This document shows, piece after piece, positions 3,458-14,958 of a DNA stretch of 64,000 bases. Position 1 is the first letter of the stretch. Every line of letters begins with the position of its first letter. The notes beneath the pieces are model-generated. The model searched no databases. It was not told the origin of the DNA and was given only the letters and a program-made list of their open reading frames with translations. A program made the translations under genes and the position numbers. The stretch is from Crossiella cryophila (GTDB lineage Bacteria > Actinomycetota > Actinomycetes > Mycobacteriales > Pseudonocardiaceae), in the NCBI RefSeq assembly GCF_014204915.1, contig NZ_JACHMH010000001.1:2997001-3061000 (forward strand), read 5' to 3'.

Positions 3458-3732
3458 TCGACGCCGATGTTGAACGCGGCCTCGGTGTCGGCCTTGGAGT
3501 AGGAGCGGAACGCGATGTGCGTGTCCGTGTTGAGCACCCCGGCCACCTTGCCGATCCGGCCGGGCACCAGCTCCGCCAGATCCTCGTGCCGGGACACCTG
3601 GACCACCGCGATCAGGTCCACGTCACCGGCACAGGAGTAGACCTCCAGCACACCCTCGAAGTCGGCGATGGTCTGCGCGGCCTCCGGGATGCTCGCGGCG
3701 TCGGACTGGATCAGCACGATGGCCTTGATCAC
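3454..3732 (-). CDS. Stand-alone Lrp/AsnC ligand-binding (RAM) domain protein
   Basis: The 92-residue protein is just the effector-binding half of an Lrp/AsnC regulator. It has the pattern I.LIQ, then EV..CAGDVDLIAVVQV, then GVLNTDTHIAF of the RAM fold and no helix-turn-helix. Such stand-alone domains form decamer rings that bind amino acids and may modulate full-length Lrp proteins. I chose the GTG at 3732 because AAGGAG lies six bases upstream and the family starts with an I-K-A-.-V-L-I strand; the longer open frame upstream has no family resemblance. It sits next to the qcr region in many actinobacteria (from memory). Confidence 0.85.
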   Translation of the reverse strand: MIKAIVLIQSDAASIPEAAQTIADFEGVLEVYSCAGDVDLIAVVQVSRHEDLAELVPGRIGKVAGVLNTDTHIAFRSYSKADTEAAFNIGVD

Positions 3733-3939
3733 GGTGTGCTCCTTGGGCGCTGAGGTGGTGGACCGATCGTAGCCAGCGGGTTTTCCACCGCGCGGGGTGG
3801 CCGGACCCGATCGGGTGGCGGGGACTGGGTTGACCCTGTGGCAAGGGGGAAACTGGGGAAGGGCGGGGAGGCCGGGGGAGGGCCGGTGGGACAGGCGGCA
3901 GTGGGGTGGGCGGCAGTGGGACGGGCAGGGGAGCGGGCG

Positions 3940-4248
3940 ATGAGGCTGGGACCGGGGCATCCGGACTGGGTGGATGTGGCCAAGACGGGGCCTGCGGTGT
4001 GGGCGGCGCTGGACGGCGAGGCCCGTTCCAGGTTCGAGGAGCTGTTCCGCGCGGCACTGGCCCAGGCCGCCGAGGATTTTGACCTCGCCCCGGTGCAGGA
4101 GGTCGTGCACGCCTGGTGGCCGATGGCCATCCTCGGGGTCAACCCGGACCCGGAGGTGGAAGCGGAGATCAAGCGGTTCCGGGACAGCGGCGAGGACTTC
4201 TCCCTGTTGCCGCCGCCGATCCGCGATGAGGACGAGGCCCGGCCGTGA
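3940..4248 (+). CDS. Probable antitoxin (first gene of a two-gene TA-like module)
   Basis: The 102-residue protein is mostly alpha-helical and acidic, with a helix around FRAALAQAAEDFDLAPVQEVVHAWW and a charged C-terminus (DEDEARP). I do not recognise it with certainty, but it resembles small actinobacterial proteins found in front of RelE/ParE-like genes (DUF6247-like, inferred). I chose the ATG at 3940 because AGGGGAG lies just upstream; the longer frame from a GTG at 3838 adds only Gly/Ala-rich sequence. Its stop overlaps the GTG of the next gene (GTGA), so the pair is translationally coupled. Confidence 0.6.
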   Translation: MRLGPGHPDWVDVAKTGPAVWAALDGEARSRFEELFRAALAQAAEDFDLAPVQEVVHAWWPMAILGVNPDPEVEAEIKRFRDSGEDFSLLPPPIRDEDEARP

Positions 4249-4487
4249 GGTACGAGGTCATCCTGGCCGAGGTCGCGCAGCGCACCTTCGACAGCATGCC
4301 GTCGTCCGGGCAGCAGGCGTTCACCGCGAAGCGTCGTCGGCTGGCGGTCGCGCCGGAGCAGGAAGGCACCTGGAGTCCCAAGACCCATCGGTGGACCACA
4401 CACATGGGGCCGCACGGGGTGATCGAGTACACCGTGCACGGCTCGGTGGTCCGGGTGGTGGTCTGGCGGATCCAGTTCTACGGCTAA
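4245..4487 (+). CDS. RelE/ParE-like toxin candidate
   Basis: The 80-residue basic protein has the size and layout of RelE/ParE toxins. An N-terminal strand (YEVILAE) is followed by two short helices with PSSGQQAFTAKRRRLA, and C-terminal strands (GVIEYTVHGSVVRVVVWRI) match the antiparallel sheet of the fold. RelE members cut ribosome-bound mRNA and ParE members poison gyrase; nothing here decides between them. It overlaps its putative antitoxin by four bases and overlaps the stop of the convergent exonuclease gene by four bases. Confidence 0.6.
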   Translation: MRYEVILAEVAQRTFDSMPSSGQQAFTAKRRRLAVAPEQEGTWSPKTHRWTTHMGPHGVIEYTVHGSVVRVVVWRIQFYG

Positions 4488-6217
4488 TCCGCCCCCGCGT
4501 ACCCCTGCCGCCCAGCCTCCGCCCGCTCCAGCCACTCCCGCCACCGGGCCGCCCCCCTGGCAGGCGAGCGCCACGGCTCCGCCACCCGCACCAGCCGCGT
4601 CCCCGGTTGCTCCACCCAGCGCAGGATCACCCTGACCTCCTCCGCGGGCGCCCCGAACAGCGGGCCCGCCCCCAGCAGCACCGTCTCCGCGCCCAGTACC
4701 AGCGCCTCCACCACCGGCATCGGCGCCACCCCGCGCCGGGCGCCGCCCGCGGAGGCCAGGCGTCCGTGCCGCACGATCGCGAACTGCCAGCCGCCGCTGC
4801 CGTCCGGGCGGGCCGCGATGAACTCCGGGATCGCCGCCAACGCCGTCAGCCGCTGGCCGCGGTCCAGGCCCTTGAGCAGGCCCGCGATCCGGTCTCGGTG
4901 CAGGCCTGCCTGCTCGAAGCGTTCGGTGGTGGCGAAGGTGCCGAGTTGGTCCAGGAGCAGGCGGACGGGGTTGTCGTCGTGGCCGGCGACCAGGGCGCGC
5001 AGGGCCTCGACGGCGGGGGCGTAGTCGGCGGGGGACTGGTGGCCCGCGCAGGGGGCGGCGCAGCGGTCGAGGTCGGCCAGGACGCAGGGGCGGCCCTGGG
5101 GGTTGCGGGCGGGGATGCGCTGGTTGCACTGGCGCAGCGGGATGGCCTCGTGGATGGCCTCCACGGCGAGGGTGGCGGTGTTTCGGCTGGTGAAGGGGCC
5201 TAGGGCACCTTCCCTCGGGGTGGTGACCACGGAGAGGCGGGGGAAGGGTTCGTCGGTGAGGGTGATCCACCAGGCGCGGTGCGGCTGGGTGGAGCGACGG
5301 TTGTACCGGGGGCGGTGCGCGGCGAGCAGGCGCAGTTCGCGGACCGCGGCTTCCAGCGGGTGGGCGCATTCGACGTGGTCGACGCGGACGGCGAAGGCGA
5401 CCATGTCCCTGACCCTGGCCCTGGTCTCACCGGCGGTGAAGTACTGGCCGACGCGGCGGCGCAGGTTGGTGGCGGTGCCGACGTAGAGCACCTCCTCGCT
5501 GGGCCCGCGGAACAGGTACACGCCCGGCCGTTCGGGCAGGCCGCCGGCCAGGCCGCGTTTGCCGCGCTGGGCCGCGGTCACCTCGGGCAGGTAGCCGAGC
5601 AGTTCCTCCAGTGAGTGCACGCCAAGCGGGCCGACCCGCTCCAGCAGCGCGTGCAGCACGTCCACGGTGGCCTTGGCATCGTCGAGGGCCCGGTGGTTGG
5701 GGGTGACCGCGGCGCCGAAGAGGGCGGCCAGCGCGGAGAGCCGGCAACTGGGGGCCTCCTCGCGGGAGAGCACCCGGCGGGCCAGCCGGACCGTGCACAG
5801 CACCTGCAGCTTCGGCCACTCGTAGCCGAGCTGCGCGCTGGCCGCTTTGAGGAAGCCGATGTCGAAGGGCGCGTTGTGCGCCACCAGCACCGTCTTGGCG
5901 TCCCCGGTGGCGAACTCCAGGAAGGCGGGCAGCACCTCGGCCAGCTTGGGCGCGTCACGCACCATGGCCTCGGTGATGCCGGTCAGCGCGACCACCTCCG
6001 GCGGGATGCCGCGCTCCGGGTCGACCAGGGTGCCGAACTCGCCGAGCAGCTGCCCGCCGCGGATCTTCACCGCGCCGAACTCGGTGATCGTGTCCGTGCC
6101 GGGCCGCCCGCCGGTGGTCTCCAGGTCCAGCACGACGAAGGTCACCTCGTGCAGTGGGGTGCCCAACTGCTCGAGGCTGAGCTGCACTGGGATGGCCCTC
6201 GGGCGGTCCTGATTCAT
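4484..6217 (-). CDS. DEDDh 3'-5' exonuclease fused to a UvrC/Cho-like GIY-YIG nuclease (Rv2191-type)
   Basis: The 577-residue protein has two nuclease modules. Residues about 25-190 are a DnaQ-type exonuclease with DLETTG (D31, E33), HNAPFDIGF and HRALDDAK, the complete DEDDh set. Residues about 225-330 are a GIY-YIG domain (GVYLF...VLYVGT, then NLRRRV and a glutamate in AAVRELRLLAAHRPRYN), as in UvrC and Cho. The CAAPCAGH stretch near residue 390 matches the UvrC cysteine region. UvrB-binding and helix-hairpin-helix domains are not evident, so it resembles Cho more than UvrC. Its role in repair is inferred. The same fusion lies near qcrCAB in M. tuberculosis (Rv2191). Confidence 0.88.
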   Translation of the reverse strand: MNQDRPRAIPVQLSLEQLGTPLHEVTFVVLDLETTGGRPGTDTITEFGAVKIRGGQLLGEFGTLVDPERGIPPEVVALTGITEAMVRDAPKLAEVLPAFLEFATGDAKTVLVAHNAPFDIGFLKAASAQLGYEWPKLQVLCTVRLARRVLSREEAPSCRLSALAALFGAAVTPNHRALDDAKATVDVLHALLERVGPLGVHSLEELLGYLPEVTAAQRGKRGLAGGLPERPGVYLFRGPSEEVLYVGTATNLRRRVGQYFTAGETRARVRDMVAFAVRVDHVECAHPLEAAVRELRLLAAHRPRYNRRSTQPHRAWWITLTDEPFPRLSVVTTPREGALGPFTSRNTATLAVEAIHEAIPLRQCNQRIPARNPQGRPCVLADLDRCAAPCAGHQSPADYAPAVEALRALVAGHDDNPVRLLLDQLGTFATTERFEQAGLHRDRIAGLLKGLDRGQRLTALAAIPEFIAARPDGSGGWQFAIVRHGRLASAGGARRGVAPMPVVEALVLGAETVLLGAGPLFGAPAEEVRVILRWVEQPGTRLVRVAEPWRSPARGAARWREWLERAEAGRQGYAGAD

Positions 6218-6359
6218 CGTCTTGAAGGTAGGTCAGGGCACCGACAGTTCCGGCGGCAGAAACGGTGTCGGGGTCAACTTCTCTGCCTGGTGCCTGCTCA
6301 AGATCCATTGTTATGTTCCGGCACATTGGCCGTGGTGGGATGATCCGGAGGTCTGGGTA

Positions 6360-7307
6360 GTGGGCAGGCGCGACGAGCAGACACTGGCGCGGATAGGCCG
6401 CACCCTGGCCGCGGGTGAACGACCTGACAGCTGGCAGGACAACCGCGTCTCCTACGCCGAGAACCTGCGCGCCGAGATGGAGATCCTGGACAAGACCGCG
6501 GGCGCCTACTGGCACACCATCGGCTGCACCCCGGCCGAGGCCAGGCTGGTCGAGCCACTGGTGCTGCACTTCCACTCCCTGGTCTTCCAGGGCGAGCGCG
6601 GCTACGCGGCGGCCAGGGCCGAGGGGTCCAGCCGGATCACCGACCACAGCTGGAAGATCCGCCTGCAGGACCTGCTCAAGAACCACAACGTCTATGACAG
6701 CCGCATCCAGGCCACGCTGGACGACCTTGAGCGCTACCACGTGCTGGAAGGCCAGGTCCTGCTCGGCGAGCTGCCGCTGACCGAGGCCGTCCTGGAGGAG
6801 ATCGCGTTCCTGCGCTCCTCGGACCTGCACGTGATGGTCCGGGTGATCGACCGGCTCAAGGGCCGCACCCCGGACGAGGAGTTCTACCAGCTGGTCAAGA
6901 CCTCAACGGCGTTGTTCGACCTCGACCAGGACCTCGACTCCCACCAGCGGGGCAGTGCCGGGGACAGCCACAAGACCCTGCGCCTCTACCTCCGGCTGCA
7001 CGGCGCCGAGCAGGCAGGCCGGCAGCTCCGGGAGCTGCGCAACCGGATCGCGGCCAAGGGCCTGGCGCAGTTCGGCAAGGCCGGCAAGCCCGCGCTGGTG
7101 CGCTACCTGACCAGCACCCCGCTGGTGAACCTGAACCTGCCGGTGCTGCCGGAGCTGCTCGGCCTGCTGCCGCACCGGGTGCTGGCCACGGTGGCCACCT
7201 CGGTCTTCAGGTTCGAGGGATTCGGCGCGCGGGAGATCTCCAAGCCGATCGCGCAGCCGATCGCTGAACTGGACCAGCGGAAGGAAGACCGTGTCCTCTC
7301 GTCGTGA
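6360..7307 (+). CDS. Isoprenoid-fold paralog 1 of 6 (degenerate metal motifs)
   Basis: The 315-residue alpha-helical protein is the first of six tandem paralogs. Shared landmarks are NRVSY (about 28-32), a TPAEARLVEPLVLHFHSLVFQ helix, the LDDLERYHVLEGQVLLGEL block and FLRSSDL. At the position where siblings have D-x-x-Y-E this copy reads GERGYAA, and the second motif is DQDLDSHQRG (about 189-198), so both acidic clusters are damaged. The start is set at the GTG at 6360: GGAGG lies eight bases upstream and VGRRDEQTLARI aligns with VSSRRERQSLERI of paralog 2. It overlaps paralog 2 by 17 bases, which implies coupled translation. The fold assignment is inferred. Confidence 0.7.
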   Translation: MGRRDEQTLARIGRTLAAGERPDSWQDNRVSYAENLRAEMEILDKTAGAYWHTIGCTPAEARLVEPLVLHFHSLVFQGERGYAAARAEGSSRITDHSWKIRLQDLLKNHNVYDSRIQATLDDLERYHVLEGQVLLGELPLTEAVLEEIAFLRSSDLHVMVRVIDRLKGRTPDEEFYQLVKTSTALFDLDQDLDSHQRGSAGDSHKTLRLYLRLHGAEQAGRQLRELRNRIAAKGLAQFGKAGKPALVRYLTSTPLVNLNLPVLPELLGLLPHRVLATVATSVFRFEGFGAREISKPIAQPIAELDQRKEDRVLSS

Positions 7308-8217
7308 GCGGCAGTCCCTGGAGCGCATCCGGGCGACGATCTACAACCAGCCCAAACACGCCACCTGGCGTCAGTCCGGCGTGCCGTACGCGGCCACCCT
7401 CAAGGGCACCTCGGTGCTGAAGTTCAAGGGCGGGGACATCTACCGCCGCCTGCTGGGGTGCAGCCGGGCCGAGTACGACCTGCTGCAGCCGCTGGTCGTG
7501 CAGTGGCTCGCGCTGGTCTACCAGGGCGATGAGATCTACGAGGACGCCCAGGCCAGCGGCCAGTCCAGCGCCGAAGGCGGCTGGAAGCAGCGGATGCGCG
7601 ACGTCGCCGAGGGCCACGGCCTCTACGAGCCCGCCATCGGCAAGGAGATCGAGGAGCTGGAGCGCTACTACGTCCTGGAAGGGCAGATCCTGCTCGGCGA
7701 GGTAGAGCTGACCGATGAGGTGCTCGCCGACGTCCTGCGGATCCGCTCCAGCGACTTCTTCGGCCTGCTGCATGTGGTGTTCCGGGCCCGCGGCGAGCGC
7801 TGCACGCCGGACTACGAGGCGCTGCTGCGTTCGCTGTGGCTGCTCGGTGAGATCAACGACGACCTCACCTCCTACGCCGAGGACGTGGCAGGCAACAGCT
7901 TCAACACCCTGCGCCTGATGGTGTGGCGGCACGGGGCGGGCGGCGCGATCGCCGGGCTGCGCGCGTTGCAGAACAAGGCGATCGCCGACCTGCTCGGCGG
8001 CCTCCGCACCGCGGGCCGGGACGCGCTGGTGCGGATGGTCAGCGGCAGTGAGGTGCTGCCGCTGGAGCACGCCGCCGGGGTGCTGCGCCTGCTGCCCACC
8101 GGGGTGCTGCGCGCGCTGGCCGGCACGCTGCTGAAGATCGAGATGGACATGATCCGCAAGATTCCGGTGCCAGCCCCGATCGCGGAGTCCGGGCCGCTGG
8201 TCGCCGCCACCTCCTGA
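7291..8217 (+). CDS. Isoprenoid-fold paralog 2 of 6 (motifs retained)
   Basis: The 308-residue helical protein has the best-preserved pair of acidic motifs in the cassette: GDEIYED (D80, E81, E84, D85) and NDDLTSYAED (D190, D191, S194, D198), about 110 residues apart. The second has the N/D-D-x-x-S-x-x-x-D/E pattern of the class I terpene synthase NSE triad; the first is a relaxed DDxxD/E. In that superfamily these motifs bind three magnesium ions and the diphosphate of a prenyl substrate. The GTG start at 7291 has AAGGA upstream and overlaps paralog 1. The C-terminus ends in a family-typical P-x-P-A-P-I-A-E-S stretch. Activity is inferred only from motif geometry. Confidence 0.72.
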   Translation: MSSRRERQSLERIRATIYNQPKHATWRQSGVPYAATLKGTSVLKFKGGDIYRRLLGCSRAEYDLLQPLVVQWLALVYQGDEIYEDAQASGQSSAEGGWKQRMRDVAEGHGLYEPAIGKEIEELERYYVLEGQILLGEVELTDEVLADVLRIRSSDFFGLLHVVFRARGERCTPDYEALLRSLWLLGEINDDLTSYAEDVAGNSFNTLRLMVWRHGAGGAIAGLRALQNKAIADLLGGLRTAGRDALVRMVSGSEVLPLEHAAGVLRLLPTGVLRALAGTLLKIEMDMIRKIPVPAPIAESGPLVAATS

Positions 8218-8268
8218 CCCGGCGGCGCCGAGGGCACCAGCACACACCTGAGAACGGGGAGAACGATC

Positions 8269-9126
8269 GTGACCGAGGCGGCGGTGCAGCGGCTCAAGGC
8301 GCGGATGGTTCCGGCGGAGCCGCCTGCGGCCTGGCAGGGACTGGACATCAGCTACCGGGACAGCCTGCGGGCCAACCGCGCGCTGCGGTGGGACAACTGG
8401 GGCGCGCGGTACGCGCTCGGCTTCACCAGGGCCGAGTTCGACGTCATCCGCCCGTTCGTCCGGCACTACATCGCACTGGCCTACCAGGCCGAGGCCGACC
8501 CGTCGCTGGTCGGCGAGCTGTCCGCGCTGGCCGACAGCTACGGCCTGCTCGACGAGCAGGTCAGGGCCGGGCTGGCCGATCTCGGCCATGCCCTGCTGAC
8601 CAGGGACCGGATCCGGCGTGGCGAGCTGGCGGTGGACGAGCAGGTCGTCACCGAGCTGACCAGGGACCGGATCGCCGACCACCGGGTGCTCAACCGGCTG
8701 CTCTACCTGCTGCGGGACCAGCCGGTCGACGAGGAGCACCTGGCCCTGCTGGATCCGTGGCTGCGCCTGCAGGACCTGCGTGCCGACCTGGCGAACTACG
8801 CGGAGGACATCGCCTGGGACCGGTTCAACCTGCTCCGGCTCTTCGTCCAGGGCCACGGGCACAGCCAGGCCACGCACAAGCTGCGCGCCTACCGGTCCGC
8901 GCTGCTGCGCCAGGCGCTGGGCAGGCTGCCGGGCGCGAGCACCCCGGCGTTGCGCAAGCTGCTCCTGGCCGGCCTGCCCGACCTGGGCCTGGAACTGACC
9001 GCGGCGGTGGTGTCGAAGCTGCCGAGGGCGGTGCTGCTGCCGCTGCTGACCTCGCTCGGGCGCACCGGGGAGCTGGCCACCGCGCCGGTACCCGCACCGT
9101 TGCCCGAAAGTGCCAATTCTCGATAG
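8269..9126 (+). CDS. Isoprenoid-fold paralog 3 of 6 (degenerate metal motifs)
   Basis: The 285-residue paralog keeps LDISY (25-29), the TRAEFDVIRPFVRHYIALAYQ helix and the second-motif helix RADLANYAEDIAWDRFN (171-187). The first acidic motif has become AEADPSL (74-80), and the loop after it is about 12 residues shorter than in paralog 2. The second motif keeps one leading Asp (D173), has N176 in place of Ser and retains E179 and D180. This looks like a copy that kept the fold but lost full metal coordination, as in non-catalytic partner subunits of heteromeric prenyl synthases (inference). The GTG at 8269 follows GGGGAGAAC, 51 bases after paralog 2. Confidence 0.68.
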   Translation: MTEAAVQRLKARMVPAEPPAAWQGLDISYRDSLRANRALRWDNWGARYALGFTRAEFDVIRPFVRHYIALAYQAEADPSLVGELSALADSYGLLDEQVRAGLADLGHALLTRDRIRRGELAVDEQVVTELTRDRIADHRVLNRLLYLLRDQPVDEEHLALLDPWLRLQDLRADLANYAEDIAWDRFNLLRLFVQGHGHSQATHKLRAYRSALLRQALGRLPGASTPALRKLLLAGLPDLGLELTAAVVSKLPRAVLLPLLTSLGRTGELATAPVPAPLPESANSR

Positions 9127-9258
9127 AAATAGCCGAAGACCCCGGCAGTTCTGCGGTTACCGGGATGCCAACAGTTTCCTCAGGTTCCGCTGACTGCCGG
9201 GCCAGCAGCCGCCCTTGCTGCTAGCTTCGCCCCCAGTCCGTGTGGCGAGGAGGAGTCG

Positions 9259-10053
9259 TTGTCCAGGTGGGGAAACAAACCGCTGACGAATGTCCGGGAT
9301 AATGTGTACGGGCGTTCGGCGCCGGAGTTCTGGGAACAGAGCAGTGTCAGCTACCGGGACAAGGTGACCTCGACCGCCCGGCTCTTCTCCTGTGGCGGGC
9401 TGCGGTACTGGGAACTGCTGGGGGCTTCCAGGGCGGAGATCCGGCTCATCCAGCCGCTGGCCTATCACTACCTCGCGCTGTGCGCCCAGGCCCGCCGCCT
9501 GGAAACCGCGGACGGCTCCTGGAAGAAGGAGATCGAGACCTTCTTCAAGAGCTACGGGGTCTATGACACCGATGTGCAGAAGGGCCTCTACGACCTCGAG
9601 CACGCGCACACGCTGACCGCCTCGCTGCGGGCCGGCCTGGTCGAGCCGACCGAGTCCCTGCTGACCGAGCTGGCCCGGCTGCGCGCCGGTGAGCTGCTGG
9701 CCCTGGTCAAGGTCATCAGCACCCTGTGCGGCAGGCCGCTGTCCACCTTCGCCCTCGGCGCCTACGAGGCCGCGGTGCGGCTGGCCCAGCTCGACGGCGA
9801 CCTCGCCGACTACGCCAAGGACGTGGCGGCGGGCCGGTACAACCACTACCACGCGCTGCTGGCCATCGCGGGCGCCCAGCAGGTCGGGGCCAGGGTGCGT
9901 GAGCAGCGCCAGGATCTGCTCACCGAGGCGGAGAACCGGTTGCGCGGCGGGCGGATCCGCCTGCGCGGGCACCGCGAGCTGCGTACCTGGCTGGCCCGCA
10001 GGCAGGAACTGCCCGCGCTGCCGCAGCCGATCATCGCGGTCGTCCCCGCCTGA
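9259..10053 (+). CDS. Isoprenoid-fold paralog 4 of 6 (shortest, first motif lost)
   Basis: At 264 residues this is the shortest member. It keeps SSVSY (28-32), RYWELLGASRAEIRLIQPLAYHYLAL and the second-motif helix LDGDLADYAKDVAAGRYN (178-195, with D179, D181, D184 and D188). The first motif is replaced by CAQARRLE, without an acidic cluster. The C-terminal helical region shared by the others is also shortened, although the closing prolines remain. The TTG at 9259 is the only start consistent with the GAGGAGGAG ribosome-binding site a few bases upstream. A 132-base gap precedes it, so an internal promoter is possible. Confidence 0.66.
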   Translation: MSRWGNKPLTNVRDNVYGRSAPEFWEQSSVSYRDKVTSTARLFSCGGLRYWELLGASRAEIRLIQPLAYHYLALCAQARRLETADGSWKKEIETFFKSYGVYDTDVQKGLYDLEHAHTLTASLRAGLVEPTESLLTELARLRAGELLALVKVISTLCGRPLSTFALGAYEAAVRLAQLDGDLADYAKDVAAGRYNHYHALLAIAGAQQVGARVREQRQDLLTEAENRLRGGRIRLRGHRELRTWLARRQELPALPQPIIAVVPA

Positions 10054-10115
10054 CCCCGTTGTCGGGGCAAGCGTTTACCTACCTATCGACCCACGACTGA
10101 CCTGGGGTATTCGTC

Positions 10116-11003
10116 ATGGTGCAATCGACAGCCACCGCTGAGGAGTTGCGCGAGCGCATCCTCGGCCCCGACGGTCCCGAGACGTGGACCTCGAGCCGGG
10201 TCTCCTACCTGGAATCGCTCAAGGCCAGCCGGGTGATGTTCCTCGAGGGCTACGACTCGATGCTGCGCATGATCGGCGTCAACGAGGACACCGCCAAGGT
10301 GTTCGAGCCACTGGTGATCCACTTCCTGGCCCTGGTCTACCAGGCCGACCTCGCCTACGAGGAGGCGCAGCTCAACGGCGACTTCGAGGTCGATCTGAGC
10401 TGGCGGCGGGACATGGAGGAGCTGCTGGAGAGCTATGGCCTGCTCGATGAGCGGGGCCGGGAACGCCTTGACGACCTGCAGCGCTACTTCGAGCTGGAGG
10501 GCCAGCTGCTGCTGGGCGAGGTCGAGGTCACCGAGGAGTCGGTCTACGAGGTGCTCTCCATCCGCTCCTCCGACATCGCGCTGGTCACCCCGCTGATGCT
10601 CAACCTGCTCGGCACCGATCCCCGGGTGGTCGAGGAGATGGTCCAGGTCTGCAAGCCGCTGTACATGCTGTGGGAGATCGCCGACGACGTGCCCTCCTAC
10701 GCCAAGGACATCGCCGCGGGCAGCTACAGCACGATCCGGATGTACGCGCGCATCTTCGGCGCCGAGCGGGGCCGGGTGAAGCTGGAGGAGTTCCGCTCCC
10801 GGCTGGTCGAGCGGGCCTGTGTGGAGATCGATCGGATCAGCGTGACCACGATGCTGATGGTGCTCGCCTCCGCGGTCCCGGACTGGCTGCTGCCGGTGCT
10901 GCGCAGGCTGCCGCGCCCGGTGCTGGCGCGGATCCTCAAGACCGTGGCCCGCCAGGACAAGCAGGGCAGGCCGGAACTGCCGGTTCTCATTGACGAGAAA
11001 TGA
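10116..11003 (+). CDS. Isoprenoid-fold paralog 5 of 6 (motifs retained)
   Basis: The 295-residue protein retains both acidic motifs: QADLAYEEAQ (D78, E82, E83) and ADDVPSYAKD (D190, D191, S194, D198), 112 residues apart. Family blocks SRVSYLESLKAS, KVFEPLVIHFLALVYQ, LQRYFELEGQLLLGEVEVT and SIRSSD are all present. This is one of three copies that could still coordinate magnesium and a prenyl diphosphate if the fold assignment is right. The ATG at 10116 is 62 bases after paralog 4, with only a weak purine stretch (CTGGGG) upstream. Confidence 0.71.
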   Translation: MVQSTATAEELRERILGPDGPETWTSSRVSYLESLKASRVMFLEGYDSMLRMIGVNEDTAKVFEPLVIHFLALVYQADLAYEEAQLNGDFEVDLSWRRDMEELLESYGLLDERGRERLDDLQRYFELEGQLLLGEVEVTEESVYEVLSIRSSDIALVTPLMLNLLGTDPRVVEEMVQVCKPLYMLWEIADDVPSYAKDIAAGSYSTIRMYARIFGAERGRVKLEEFRSRLVERACVEIDRISVTTMLMVLASAVPDWLLPVLRRLPRPVLARILKTVARQDKQGRPELPVLIDEK

Positions 11004-11136
11004 CATTTCGCTGTAATTCGATGTTTCCGCAAGCACTTCTGCTGGCATTTATGTGAATTCGCCGACGTGGCCGAGGTGAGATTTTCGAATTCTATCCTGG
11101 ATTCGCATTGGAAGGCGAACTCGGGAGGAATCGGAC

Positions 11137-11997
11137 ATGTCGGATTACTGGCAGGAACATCACATCAGCTACCAGATGAACGCGCGGGCGCACAGGTTCC
11201 TGGACTACCTCAACGGCTTCAACCTCAGGTTCGGCCACTACACCGCCGCCGAGGCGGCCAGGGTGCGGCCGTTGATGGTCCAGTACTACGGCCTGATGTA
11301 CAAGGGTGACTTCTTGTACGAACAGGCCCAGCGGATGGGCAGCTCGACCATCACCGACCACTCGTGGAAGCACGAGATGATCGAGCTGATCAAGGGTTAT
11401 GACGCCTGGGACGGCGGAGTGGCGCACGTGGTGGACGAGCTGGAGCGGTACTACGTCCTGGAAGGCCGGATCATGCTCGGCGAGGTCGAGCTGACCCAGG
11501 AGGTCTTCGCCGAGGTCTGCGACATCCGGTCGCTGGTGGTCAACGGGTTGACCAGGGTGCTCAACAACATCAAGGGCGTGCCGACCGACGACGGGCTGTT
11601 CCACGTGCTGCGCCCGCTGGCCGCCTTCCTGGACATGATCGACGACTTCGAGTCCTATGCCGAGGACGTGGCCGAGGACTGCTTCAGCTCGCTGCGGTTG
11701 CTGGTCCGGATGCACGGGGTGGACCAGGCCAGGGTCAAGGCCCGGGAATACCTGTCGGGGCAGCTGGCCGAGGCCGTGGCGCGGATCCGCCGGGCGCCCC
11801 GGCACACCGTGCTCGGCGTCTACCAGGTGCTGCTGCTGGACAAGGAGAACGTGGCGCCGGTGCGCGCGGTTCTGCGGGCACTGCCGACCAGGGTGCTGGC
11901 CGCGCTGGCGGAGAAGCTGGTGCGCCTGTACTTCGCCATGCCCGCCGAGATCCCGGCCCCGGTGGCCGAGCGGACCCCGGTCCCGGCCCTGGCGTGA
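11137..11997 (+). CDS. Isoprenoid-fold paralog 6 of 6 (motifs retained)
   Basis: The 286-residue protein has KGDFLYEQAQ (D58, E62) and MIDDFESYAED (D169, D170, S173, E176, D177), 111 residues apart. It shares HHISY (8-12), the DELERYYVLEGRIMLGEVELT block and a C-terminal arm ending in P-A-P-V-A-E-R. Its N-terminus is about 20 residues shorter than those of paralogs 1, 2 and 5. The ATG at 11137 has GGGAGGA at a good distance. The preceding 133 bases are noticeably richer in A and T than the surroundings and could hold a separate promoter. It is the last member of the cassette; a NYN-domain gene follows. Confidence 0.71.
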   Translation: MSDYWQEHHISYQMNARAHRFLDYLNGFNLRFGHYTAAEAARVRPLMVQYYGLMYKGDFLYEQAQRMGSSTITDHSWKHEMIELIKGYDAWDGGVAHVVDELERYYVLEGRIMLGEVELTQEVFAEVCDIRSLVVNGLTRVLNNIKGVPTDDGLFHVLRPLAAFLDMIDDFESYAEDVAEDCFSSLRLLVRMHGVDQARVKAREYLSGQLAEAVARIRRAPRHTVLGVYQVLLLDKENVAPVRAVLRALPTRVLAALAEKLVRLYFAMPAEIPAPVAERTPVPALA

Positions 11998-12075: not shown

Positions 12076-13449
12076 GTGTTCCCGTTGCCCGCGCAGACCA
12101 GCCACGACCGGCCGGAACCCGATCCGGGTCCGTCCGCTGTGGACGGTGCGCCGCCGCCGGAGCCCGAGGTGGAGTTCGACGCTCTGCCCGAGGCCGTCCG
12201 CGCGCGACTCGCCGAGTTGTCCGCCGAGGCGCTGGGCACCATGCCCCAGCTCGACATCCCGCAGCCACTGCGGCCGGTGGCCCGGTTCGCCCCGGCCAAG
12301 CGGGCGAAGCTGGGCACCGGTCCGCTGCTGGCCGCGCTGCGGGATTCGGCGGTCTTCCGCAACGCGGTGGTGCAGTGGTGCCGGGAGCACCGGCCCAGCA
12401 CCCTGGAGCTGGCCCCCGGTGATCCGGTGGCCACCGCGGCCGCGGCCGTGCTGCTGGCCGATCCGGCCGCGCCACTGCACGTGGAGCTGGTCGCCCGGCG
12501 CTCGGTGGACGCCCAGCTGCGCTCCGAACGCGACGCCGGCGTGTCCCGGATCGAGCGCCTGGAGGCCGAACTGGCCAGGATGCGCGCCGAACTGGACGAG
12601 GCCAGGGGCGCGGCCGAGCGGGTCCGGCAGGAGGGCGAGGCCGAACTGGACCGGCTGCGCAAACGCCTCCGCGAGCAGGGCGTGAAACTGCGTCAGGCCA
12701 AGGACGAGGCCGAGGCGGCCAGGACCGCGCTGACCAAGGGACACGGCGAGACCGAGGCGGTGGTCGCCGCGATCACCGCCGAACGGGACAAGGAACGCGA
12801 ACGCGCCGACACCGAGCGGGTCAAGGCCGGTCGCGCGCTGGCCGAGGCCGAGGTGGCCAGGCAGTCCGCCAGGGAGGCCCGCCAGGCCGACGAGGTCCGG
12901 CTCGGCCTGCTGGTGGACACCCTGGCCGGCGCGGTCACCGGCCTGCGCCGGGAACTCGCCCTCGGCGGCAGTGGGCCGCGGCCGGCCGACACCGTGCGCG
13001 GGGCCACCCCGGCCACCGGCGCGGTCGGCCGGGTGGAGGATCCGGCCGCACTGGACCGGCTGCTGGCGCTGCCCACCGTGCACCTGGTGGTGGACGGCTA
13101 CAACGTCACCAAGACCGGCTACCCCGAGCTGACCCTCTCCGAGCAGCGGGACCGGCTGGTGCACCAGCTCGCGGTGCTGGCCGCGCGCACCGGGGCCGAG
13201 GTCACGCTGGTCTTCGACGGCGCCGGCGTGGTCGCGGTGCCCACCTCGGCGCCGCGCGGGGTGCGGGTGCTCTTCAGCGATCCCGGCGTGCTCGCCGACG
13301 ACGTGATCAGGGCCCTGGTCACCGCCGAGCCGGAGGGTCGCCCGGTGGTCGTGGTGACCTCCGACCGCGCGGTGGCCGATTCCATCCGCCGCCGGGGCGC
13401 GCACCCGGTGCCCTCGGCGGTGTTGCTGGCCAGGTTGGGCCGGGTGTGA
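12076..13449 (+). CDS. NYN (YacP/PIN-like) domain protein with coiled coil
   Basis: The 457-residue protein has an N-terminal helical part, a long charged coiled coil (about residues 140-280, rich in E, A and R, beginning near RSERDAGVSRIERLEAEL) and a C-terminal NYN domain (about 335-457). The NYN domain shows VHLVVDGYNVTK, EVTLVFDGAG and DVIRALV...VVVTSDRAVAD, which supply the Asp residues of PIN-like RNases (D344-type in VDGYN, D in FDGAG, D in TSDRA). These domains cut structured RNA and actinobacterial members are often called RNA-binding. The GTG at 12076 follows the cassette by 78 bases. It belongs to the conserved backbone rather than the cassette (inference). Confidence 0.85.
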   Translation: MFPLPAQTSHDRPEPDPGPSAVDGAPPPEPEVEFDALPEAVRARLAELSAEALGTMPQLDIPQPLRPVARFAPAKRAKLGTGPLLAALRDSAVFRNAVVQWCREHRPSTLELAPGDPVATAAAAVLLADPAAPLHVELVARRSVDAQLRSERDAGVSRIERLEAELARMRAELDEARGAAERVRQEGEAELDRLRKRLREQGVKLRQAKDEAEAARTALTKGHGETEAVVAAITAERDKERERADTERVKAGRALAEAEVARQSAREARQADEVRLGLLVDTLAGAVTGLRRELALGGSGPRPADTVRGATPATGAVGRVEDPAALDRLLALPTVHLVVDGYNVTKTGYPELTLSEQRDRLVHQLAVLAARTGAEVTLVFDGAGVVAVPTSAPRGVRVLFSDPGVLADDVIRALVTAEPEGRPVVVVTSDRAVADSIRRRGAHPVPSAVLLARLGRV

Positions 13450-13779
13450 GCGCGCACATACGCGGTTGGCGTGTGGCGCTCGTCACTTTTCTCGGGTGAA
13501 CCGGGTTGCAACCAGGAACGGACCGTGTCGGTGGGTATTGACAGTTGATCTCTAGGGAACGGCAACACCGCAGGTCGCGCTGAATATGGTGAGTGATTAC
13601 ACAGCGCTGTTGTGTCGCTGGGTAACTAGTCCGATCGGGCGGCCGGGTCACGGCCGAACATCGGCCGCCCCGCGGCGGTGGACTGGGGGCCTCACTACTC
13701 GTAACCTGTCCGAGATCTCGCGGCGGACCGTCGTCCAACCGAGGGCGACACCGCGAGACACCGCCGAATCGGCTTGTCG

Positions 13780-13897
13780 GGGGCCGAACCGGGGACCCAG
13801 GCAGTTGGGGTGAATCGGGCGGGCCTGTACCTGGGCGCCGCGCGTAGGGCGACTTCGGGCCCGAACCCGTCAGCTAACCCGGTAAGCGGTAGCGAGC
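13780..13897 (+). promoter_or_regulatory. c-di-AMP riboswitch (ydaO-yuaA type)
   Basis: The leader of the NlpC/P60 gene contains the characteristic conserved blocks of the ydaO aptamer in order: GGCCGAACCGGGGACCC, GTTGGGGTGAATC, GTAGGGCGACTT and CCCGAACCCGTCAGCTAACC followed by GGTAAGCGG. In actinobacteria this riboswitch commonly controls peptidoglycan hydrolases (NlpC/P60, Rpf), and c-di-AMP binding usually turns expression off. The aptamer ends about 20 bases before the GTG start. The 330 bases between it and the NYN gene stop (13450-13779) hold no gene; I saw a TTGACA at 13538 but no convincing -10 partner. Confidence 0.88.
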
Positions 13898-13917
13898 ACG
13901 AAGGAGTAGTACGCCAC

Positions 13918-14958
13918 GTGGCGTCGCATCGACTCAAGCGCACGATGCGCGGGGCCCTCGCGGCCTCCGCAGTTGTGGTCGCCGTCGGCCTCGCGCCGAC
14001 GACCCCCGCGCTGGCCGACCCGGAACTGCCCGCCAACGCCTCCGAGGCGATGAAGCAGCTCCAGGAAATGTCCAAGGAAACCGAGAAGATCGCGGAATCC
14101 CTGCACGAGGCCAAGGACGACCTCAACAAGAAGAACGCCGACCTGGAGAAGGCCAACAAGGAGGCCGAGGAAGCCAGCAAGCTCGGCGCCCTGGCCCGCG
14201 AGCAGGAACGGCAGCTCCGCGGGGACGTCGACAAGATGGCCTCCGCCGACTTCGAGGGCGCGCGGCTGAACCAGCTCAGCGCGCTGCTGATGTCGCGTTC
14301 GCCGAATGAGTTCCTGGACAAGATGGCGTTGCTGGACATGCTCGCTGGCGACAACAAGGACGCCATCGACAAGCTGCACGCCACCATCAAGCAGGCCGAG
14401 GACGCCGGCAAGCGCGCGGTGGACGCCAAGGACCGCGCGCAGAAGGCCACTGACGAGGCCAAGCGCATCACCACCGAGCTGGACAAGCGCCGGGCCGAGC
14501 TGGAGACCCGCCGGTCCAAGGTGAAGGCGCAGTACGACAAGCTCACCCAGGACGAGCGGAACAAGCTCAAGGGGCCCGAGGACAACTCGGTCATCAACAT
14601 CCCCGGCAACAGCGGGATCGCGGGCGCGGCGCTGGAGAAGGCGCTGAGCAAGCGTGGCTCGAAGTACGTCTACGGCGACGAGGGTCCCAACACCTTCGAC
14701 TGCTCCGGCCTGATCTACTGGGCCTACCGGCAGGTCGGCATGGAGCTGCCGCGATCCAGTTCGCAGCAGGCCCGGATCGGCACCGCGGTGCCGATCAGCG
14801 CCATCCAGCCGGGCGACCTGGTCGCCTACAAGGGCCACATCGGCATCTCGGTCGGCAACGGCAAGATGGTGCACGCGCCCACCACCGGCGACGTGGTCAA
14901 GATCGCCCCGCTGCAGAGCGGCATCGTCGCGGTCCGCCGGGTCGGGGTCGGCTCCTGA
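13918..14958 (+). CDS. ripC: Secreted NlpC/P60 peptidoglycan endopeptidase (RipC-type)
   Basis: The 346-residue exported hydrolase cuts peptide stems of peptidoglycan. A signal peptide spans about residues 1-35 (RLKRTMRGALAASAVVVAVG, cleavage after PALA). A long coiled coil (about 45-225) resembles FtsX-activated hydrolases, and the NlpC/P60 domain (about 235-346) has the catalytic Cys in FDCSGL, His in KGHIGIS and a third residue in VHAPTT. I chose the GTG at 13918 because GAAGGAG lies upstream and a basic signal peptide follows. The position next to PimB matches Rv2190c (RipC), which is activated by FtsEX. Control by the upstream c-di-AMP riboswitch links wall cleavage to turgor signalling. 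Confidence 0.9.
   Translation: MASHRLKRTMRGALAASAVVVAVGLAPTTPALADPELPANASEAMKQLQEMSKETEKIAESLHEAKDDLNKKNADLEKANKEAEEASKLGALAREQERQLRGDVDKMASADFEGARLNQLSALLMSRSPNEFLDKMALLDMLAGDNKDAIDKLHATIKQAEDAGKRAVDAKDRAQKATDEAKRITTELDKRRAELETRRSKVKAQYDKLTQDERNKLKGPEDNSVINIPGNSGIAGAALEKALSKRGSKYVYGDEGPNTFDCSGLIYWAYRQVGMELPRSSSQQARIGTAVPISAIQPGDLVAYKGHIGISVGNGKMVHAPTTGDVVKIAPLQSGIVAVRRVGVGS

What the first reader, a model, noticed from the sequence alone, without database searches (positions are those of the whole stretch)
6360..11997. Cassette of six tandem paralogs with a divergent class I isoprenoid-synthase-like fold
Seen: six consecutive same-strand genes (315, 308, 285, 264, 295 and 286 residues) share an N-terminal [VI]-S/P-Y motif, an R-A/T-E-x-helix, an LEG-x-x-LLGE-type block, and a helix with D-x-D/D-D-x-x-S-Y-A-x-D. 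The last resembles the NSE triad of class I terpene synthases, about 110 residues after a relaxed DDxxD-like motif. Known: class I prenyl/terpene enzymes use two acidic motifs facing each other. Inference: this is a duplicated and diversified family, not a standard terpene synthase, inserted in otherwise conserved chromosome between the Rv2191-type nuclease and ripC. Six side-by-side copies of such a protein are unusual and could form a heteromeric enzyme or a prenyl-lipid binding assembly.
Basis: partly seen in the sequence, partly recalled or inferred. Interest (0 to 1): 0.85.

Follow-up and report, generated by a model that had tools for sequence, protein, structure and literature searches.

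The report
Six tandem terpene-synthase-fold paralogs
A soil bacterium carries six side-by-side copies of a barely studied protein family that is predicted to fold like terpene-making enzymes and appears related to a protein needed for the antibiotic gromomycin; three copies keep the predicted active site, three have lost it, and all five genomes of the genus that could be searched carry the set in some form.

Summary

Seven relatives were found outside Crossiella. In two genomes the relative sits where groH does in gromomycin clusters (GroH is a proposed prenyltransferase whose deletion abolishes gromomycin); in two it follows dxs-ispG-ispH; in one it abuts idi. So this is a probable GroH-like, class I-fold, prenyl-diphosphate-using family with a genus-specific catalytic-plus-degenerate cassette. 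The chemistry and any heteromer are inferred.

The parts
6360..7307 (+). copy A (315 aa), class I isoprenoid-synthase-like; motif 1 reads ERGYA and motif 2 QDLDSHQRG, so metal ligands lost here; the G300/G301 orthologs keep them (DIIYE, DDFDSYERD)
7291..8217 (+). copy B (308 aa), motifs intact; overlaps copy A by 17 bp; AlphaFold2 model pLDDT 83.9, pTM 0.84
7528..7542 (+). copy B first acidic motif D80xxxE84
7744..7755 (+). copy B R152xxD155 at a helix break, candidate sensor Arg and linker Asp
7858..7884 (+). copy B NSE-type motif DDLTSYAED, residues 190-198
8269..9126 (+). copy C (285 aa), motif-degenerate; clade present in 5 of 5 Crossiella genomes
9259..10053 (+). copy D (264 aa), motif-degenerate, shortened C terminus; clade present in 5 of 5 Crossiella genomes
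10116..11003 (+). copy E (295 aa), motifs intact (DLAYE, RSSD, DDVPSYAKD); AlphaFold2 model pLDDT 82.8, pTM 0.80
10683..10709 (+). copy E NSE-type motif DDVPSYAKD
11137..11997 (+). copy F (286 aa), both metal motifs intact (DFLYE, DDFESYAED); linker Asp replaced (RSLV)
11641..11667 (+). copy F NSE-type motif DDFESYAED
4484..6217 (-). left flank: exonuclease (RNase_T) plus GIY-YIG protein, conserved neighbour
12076..13449 (+). right flank: NYN_YacP-domain protein, conserved neighbour
13774..14958 (+). right flank: NlpC/P60 peptidase (ripC-like)

Best explanation
The cassette encodes six proteins of one family with the class I isoprenoid-synthase fold, homologous to the protein in the groH position of gromomycin-type clusters. 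Copies B (7291), E (10116) and F (11137) most likely bind an allylic prenyl diphosphate through Mg2+ held between D80/E84 and D190/S194/D198 (7291 numbering), with R152 contacting the diphosphate. They ionise it and pass the carbocation to an acceptor (prenyl transfer, as proposed for GroH) or, less likely, cyclise it. Copies C (8269) and D (9259), and copy A (6360) in this lineage, cannot hold metal in the standard way and are probably non-catalytic partners. Shown: paralogy, predicted fold, motif spacing, conserved site, isoprenoid context of most relatives. Inferred: chemistry, acceptor, partnership. My confidences: family and fold 0.9; diphosphate chemistry of the intact copies 0.75; transfer rather than cyclisation 0.55; partner role 0.35.
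Confidence: 0.6

Rival explanations
1. The intact copies are non-canonical class I terpene cyclases making hydrocarbons or alcohols, not transferases; each copy makes its own product and the degenerate copies are unimportant.
For: Best structural neighbours include terpene cyclases such as BjKS, and Sat1646 is the best sequence profile hit. The genus is rich in terpene synthases (15 PF19086 places in the own genome). Non-canonical TPS families outside gene clusters are known (PMC11234867, whole text).
Against: The members nearest to experiment, those in the groH position, are in pathways whose proposed step is transfer, and the accumulated intermediate is a prenylated guanidine. Structural rows also include many chain-elongating prenyl synthases.
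Confidence: 0.35
2. Copies A, C and D are decaying by-products of tandem duplication, with no partner role.
For: Between copy A (own, S99.2) and its intact G300/G301 orthologs dN/dS is 0.74-0.89; C and D reach 1.19 and 1.02 in pairs with G298; cassette genes have about one to seven times the dN of the two flanking genes in the same genome pairs.
Against: C and D are open in all 5 genomes. Outside pairs with G298, dN/dS is 0.13-0.41 for D and 0.29-0.65 for C, against 0.30-0.64 for the intact copy E. R152 is kept in 9 of 10, D191 in 10 of 10 and D198 in 9 of 10 members of C and D although D80 and E84 are each lost in 9 of 10.
Confidence: 0.35
3. The proteins bind or carry prenyl lipids without chemistry.
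For: No adjacent isoprenoid genes found at the cassette; half the window copies lack metal ligands.
Against: Three copies keep both metal motifs, and D80, E84 and D198 are each kept in 22 of 24 members outside clades C and D; relatives sit in biosynthetic gene arrays, and groH is essential for an early step.
Confidence: 0.1
4. An unrelated all-helical family with chance motif resemblance.
For: Foldseek E above 0.001 and weak hhalign scores; VIA Z close to the level the tool calls possible for generic helical bundles.
Against: Models of two paralogs 30% identical, built from the same 12 sequences, give only isoprenoid enzymes among the listed VIA rows; motif residues fall on the expected helices; isoprenoid gene context of relatives.
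Confidence: 0.04

Closest known systems
GroH of gromomycin biosynthesis (PMC12105684, PMC13010261)
   Same: Relatives of the cassette lie directly beside a Pyr4-like cyclase, in loci with three Rieske genes, a tyrosine phosphatase and a polyprenyl synthetase (only partly matched in G1043); the A. xinjiangensis order groD-groH-groF-phosphatase is kept as family gene-cyclase-phosphatase in G1043 and synthetase-family gene-cyclase in G892. Homology of those relatives to the cassette is clear from a profile of the six window paralogs (E 2e-17 and 3e-16). GroH is likewise described as resembling terpene synthases and prenyltransferases.
   Different: The cassette has six copies, no isoprenoid cluster around it, and half its copies lack metal ligands; the groH-position proteins have His in place of the NSE serine (NDLAHYPRD, NDLSHYQRD). 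GroH's own sequence was not compared.
Sat1646, class I diterpene synthase (PDB 7e4n; PMC9814573)
   Different: About 10% identity; its sensor Arg is on helix H, whereas here the conserved Arg is at a helix break, the place reported for other bacterial class I enzymes; no shared Pfam model found.
Non-canonical terpene synthase classes ID, IE, IF (PMC11234867)
   Same: Class I-like predicted fold, sequences not recognised by terpene synthase models, some outside clusters.
   Different: Class ID's RXXKD motif is absent in 34 of 34 family members. IE, IF and types 2-4 could not be compared, since I saw no sequences for them; the family could be one of these.
Heteromeric prenyl diphosphate synthases (e.g. 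M. luteus hexaprenyl synthase 3aqb, mint GPP synthase 3kra; Foldseek rows)
   Same: Class I-fold paralogs with and without the metal motifs encoded together (that such pairs are typical of these enzymes is partly recalled).
   Different: No PF00348 match; no complex shown; here up to three motif-poor copies.

Membership tests
Class I isoprenoid synthase fold (superfamily) | all-helical class I fold | tested here: met
   Predicted only: two AF2 models; 50 of 50 listed VIA rows class I in each; no Foldseek E at or below 0.001
Class I isoprenoid synthase fold (superfamily) | two acidic metal motifs on the expected helices | tested here: met
   Met in relaxed form in 3 of 6 window copies (7291, 10116, 11137); lost in 6360, 8269, 9259; facing geometry not measured
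Class I isoprenoid synthase fold (superfamily) | prenyl-diphosphate-dependent, Mg2+-dependent activity | not testable with these tools
   needs purified protein
Canonical class I terpene synthases (PF19086 and related) | profile match | tested here: not met
Canonical class I terpene synthases (PF19086 and related) | strict DDxxD first motif | tested here: not met
   0 of 34 members at the motif-1 place
Canonical class I terpene synthases (PF19086 and related) | (N/D)DxxSxxxE/D second motif | tested here: met
   strict match in 3 of 6 window copies; 6360, 8269 and 9259 do not match
Canonical class I terpene synthases (PF19086 and related) | sensor Arg and linker at the helix G1/2 break | tested here: met
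   Arg in all 6 window copies and 24 of 24 members outside clades C and D; linker Asp 18 of 24; helix break in both models
GroH-type prenyltransferases | homology to the groH-position protein | tested here: met
   that those proteins are GroH rests on gene order
GroH-type prenyltransferases | direct comparison with GroH of Streptomyces sp. Je 1-332 | not testable with these tools
   sequence not held; supplements not available
GroH-type prenyltransferases | location beside groD and groF | tested here: not met
   met in G892 and (groD partly matched) G1043, not met for the Crossiella cassette
Polyprenyl synthetases (PF00348), heteromeric type | PF00348 match | tested here: not met
Polyprenyl synthetases (PF00348), heteromeric type | physical complex of catalytic and non-catalytic subunits | not testable with these tools
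   no complex prediction available
Class ID non-canonical TPS | RXXKD motif | tested here: not met
   0 of 34

The most novel reading that the evidence does not exclude
The cassette encodes a hetero-oligomeric class I prenyl-diphosphate enzyme built from one family: obligatory metal-free paralogs (clades C and D, present in every Crossiella genome searched) scaffold or gate interchangeable catalytic paralogs (A, B, E, F, which vary by species), giving each species its own prenylated small molecule, possibly an amine or guanidine, with no biosynthetic cluster around it.
Probability: 0.28. Interest if true: 0.85.

Novelty: new variant of a known kind. Interest (0 to 1): 0.62.

Why it matters
It places an unannotated protein family on the isoprenoid map. 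In the passages I saw of the two gromomycin papers, GroH is a hypothetical protein with a proposed prenyl- or guanidinyl-transfer role. Here its probable family gets a predicted fold, a metal-ligand hypothesis and relatives beside dxs-ispG-ispH, idi and a RiPP (TOMM) cluster, which makes the guanidine-prenylation proposal testable by point mutation. Six tandem copies with conserved motif-dead members would, if they work together, be an unusual combinatorial class I enzyme, and the family gives an extra probe for clusters that profile-based mining does not recognise.

Tried and rejected
Tried without result: Pfam and NCBIfam for the six (only sub-cutoff chance hits); PADLOC (none for the six); viral-fold search (best E 0.061, nothing informative); plasmids by tblastn with three family members (no match); viral contigs (no relative); promoter and terminator consensus scan (no excess over shuffles); GC profile (cassette 64-73% GC by 1-kb bin, not an obvious recent import).

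Rejected or weak: hhalign of the family against terpene synthases, polyprenyl synthetases and TetR. The first run included wrong-strand translations; it was repeated with strands checked (26 of 30 TS, 30 of 30 PPS and 30 of 30 TetR rows kept; dropped L081 and L105 for no usable frame, L099 and L107 for scores under 35 bits). The best was TS, aligned at the NSE motif (P 0.043), while even PPS against TS gave P 0.34, so the test has little power. G926 counted as a match but is a TetR protein and was dropped. The class ID motif RXXKD was absent. A defence-island reading has no support. Literature: search listings only; passages or sections (part 1 of 3 of PMC13307353); the whole text of PMC11234867. 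I found no paper describing this cassette in those searches (open PMC full texts only; no search named this cassette's genes, which have no names).
Full report
Observation. The six ORFs are present at the given coordinates and align over most of their length. Searching the own genome with one of them returns the other five plus a seventh, distant copy at G000:C1:8160111. No Pfam-A, NCBIfam or PADLOC model describes them; the few hits listed are far below cut-off. A profile of the six finds the seven non-Crossiella relatives with E from 3e-43 to 3e-16 for an 8000-protein database, none of 180 shuffles at E 10, and one of 86 control proteins at E 4.5.

Host and site. A close relative of the whole cassette (87-96% amino-acid identity copy by copy) is in Crossiella sp. 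S99.2 (contig of 810,412 bases, the G299 contig), so the genus is Crossiella. All 5 of 5 genus genomes held carry tandem copies: six in the own genome and S99.2, five in G298, four in G300 and G301. In all five the copies lie between the exonuclease gene and the NYN gene, followed by ripC (in G300 the nuclease runs off the contig end). By tree (repeated with three more rows) the cassette copies fall into six clades: A 6360, B 7291, C 8269, D 9259, E 10116, F 11137. The make-up is A B C D E F (own, S99.2), A C D E (G300, G301) and B C D F F (G298). C and D are the only clades present in all five genomes; as own/S99.2 and G300/G301 are close pairs, that is about three separate lineages.

Active site. 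In 7291 numbering the family has D80xxxE84 near the end of a long helix, R152xxD155 at a break between two helices, and D190 D191 xx S194 xxx D198 in a later helix. Sat1646, the best PDB profile hit (E 0.34 with six rows; 0.019 with 28 rows), binds Mg2+ with D88 and D92 of EDWQVD and with NDLASYERD (passages of PMC9814573): the same spacing, and the same final Asp instead of Glu. Outside clades C and D (24 members) D80 is kept in 22, E84 in 22, E130 in 24, R152 in 24, D191 in 24, S or T at 194 in 20, D198 in 22; position 190 is D or N in only 17. The two members that lack D80, E84 and D198 are copy A here and in S99.2; the G300 and G301 orthologs of A keep all three. In the ten members of C and D, D80 is lost in 9, E84 in 9, E130 in 9, N/D190 in 10 and S/T194 in 10, while R152 is kept in 9, D191 in 10 and D198 in 9. 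The G298 member of C keeps D80, E84 and E130. So three window copies look catalytic and three do not.

Selection. Pairwise NG86 dN/dS (rough at this G+C). Among the four genomes other than G298: D 0.13-0.41, C 0.29-0.65, intact E 0.30-0.64, B 0.34 and F 0.43 (own against S99.2 only). In pairs with G298: B 0.63-0.65, F 0.65-0.91, D 0.75-1.02, C 0.98-1.19. Copy A against its intact orthologs: 0.74-0.89. Flanking genes: 0.10-0.34. So the cassette evolves fast. The degenerate clades look as constrained as the intact ones at short range, but less so over the longest distance.

Distribution. Matches: 2 of 298 genomes of the order (own and G207); 9 of 346 of the family (the five Crossiella, G818, G892, G913 and G926, the last a TetR false positive); 1 of 396 of the phylum, the own genome; 5 of 394 of the class with a broader alignment (own, G207, G1043, G1169, G1281); and only the host itself among 22 and 24 genomes of the genera of G892 and G913. 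The samples overlap and are draws from larger groups. The family is rare and patchy. No match in plasmids for three members or in viral contigs for one.

Context of relatives outside Crossiella (7 genomes). G818 and G913: dxs, ispG, ispH, an FAD oxidoreductase, then the family gene. G892: P450, small multidrug transporter and Pyr4-like transmembrane terpene cyclase, the last overlapping the family gene; a divergently transcribed polyprenyl synthetase, three Rieske oxygenases and a PPDK-type protein; a tyrosine phosphatase next to the P450. G1043: 10 of 13 proteins of the G892 locus are matched at 50-63% identity (not the P450, the zinc dehydrogenase or the TetR), the polyprenyl synthetase only over its last 115 residues, and an LPG-synthase-like gene is present. 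G1169: an isopentenyl-diphosphate isomerase (NCBIfam NF002995, 167 bits, cut-off 127) whose stop codon abuts the start of the family gene. G1281: only an idi homolog about 8 kb away. G207: nothing of the kind within about 27 kb on either side (tblastn with E-IDS, dxs, ispG, ispH, idi, Pyr4-like and sampled synthase queries). For scale, the own genome has 11 polyprenyl-synthetase places in 10 Mb, so I estimate by hand that a few per cent of random 20-kb stretches would hold such a gene; no random-gene control was run.

Link to GroH. The published gromomycin cluster has three Rieske genes, a polyprenyl synthetase (groD), a cyclase (groF, grouped with Pyr4-like cyclases in PMC13307353), a P450, a tyrosine phosphatase (gro3), an LPG-synthase-like gene (gro4) and groH, a hypothetical protein proposed as the prenyltransferase. 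Deleting groH abolished gromomycin; deleting groF left hexaprenylguanidine (PMC12105684; PMC13010261). The second paper lists Frankia casuarinae and Saccharopolyspora phatthalungensis as carrying such clusters. The G1043 contig of 5,433,628 bases has the size that I recall for F. casuarinae CcI3, which is recall and not a call. In the A. xinjiangensis cluster the order is groD, groH, groF, phosphatase; G1043 has family gene, Pyr4-like gene, phosphatase and G892 has synthetase, family gene, Pyr4-like gene. The PPDK-type gene, the small multidrug transporter and a 189-aa protein without Pfam match, shared by G892 and G1043, are not among the gro genes that I saw named.

Other context. The seventh Crossiella copy sits in a TOMM-type RiPP cluster in the own genome: SagD-type YcaO, SagB-type dehydrogenase, leader-binding protein, Rce1-like protease and a beta-lactamase-type protein; the S99.2 copy has ORFs of like length around it, not annotated. 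The cassette itself has no isoprenoid gene beside it in the Crossiella loci searched for these genes (L038, L040, L041 and the window; L039 was not in that call); in the window the nearest is an idsA-like polyprenyl synthetase 41 kb away.

Conclusion. This is a probably GroH-like family with the class I isoprenoid-synthase fold, in which Crossiella keeps a cassette of catalytic-looking and motif-dead paralogs at one fixed site. Fold and family are well supported; prenyl-diphosphate chemistry of the intact copies is likely; transfer rather than cyclisation is a lean; a mixed complex is a hypothesis.

Noticed in passing
L043 7845-13868 (own genome C1, about 8.16 Mb): A lone family member lies in a TOMM-type RiPP cluster (SagD-type YcaO, SagB-type dehydrogenase, leader-binding protein, Rce1-like protease), which raises the question of peptide prenylation; L042 of S99.2 has ORFs of like length there, not annotated.
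   Followed up: partly
L187 7547-10827: idi, the family gene and a TPP-dependent enzyme abut or overlap, beside ketoacyl synthase and enoyl reductase genes: an isoprenoid-containing cluster that I could not name.
   Followed up: partly
L074 and L075, about 3700-10300: dxs-ispG-ispH-FAD oxidoreductase-family gene array in two genera, with no prenyl synthase, idi or Pyr4-like gene found in about 38 kb around it.
   Followed up: partly
L188 1318-1662: In the gromomycin-type cluster of G1043 the polyprenyl synthetase is matched only over its C-terminal third, so it may be truncated or broken.
   Followed up: no
L044 8362-9117 (G207): A family member in a genome with PE-PGRS-like neighbours (Mycobacterium-like, by recall), without isoprenoid genes found in about 56 kb.
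   Followed up: partly
own genome, whole: 15 canonical terpene synthase places (PF19086) and 11 polyprenyl synthetase places (PF00348) in one 10-Mb Crossiella genome.
   Followed up: no
window 12076-13449: NYN_YacP protein whose middle gives weak PADLOC hits (JetC3, PbeC), probably coiled-coil chance.
   Followed up: no
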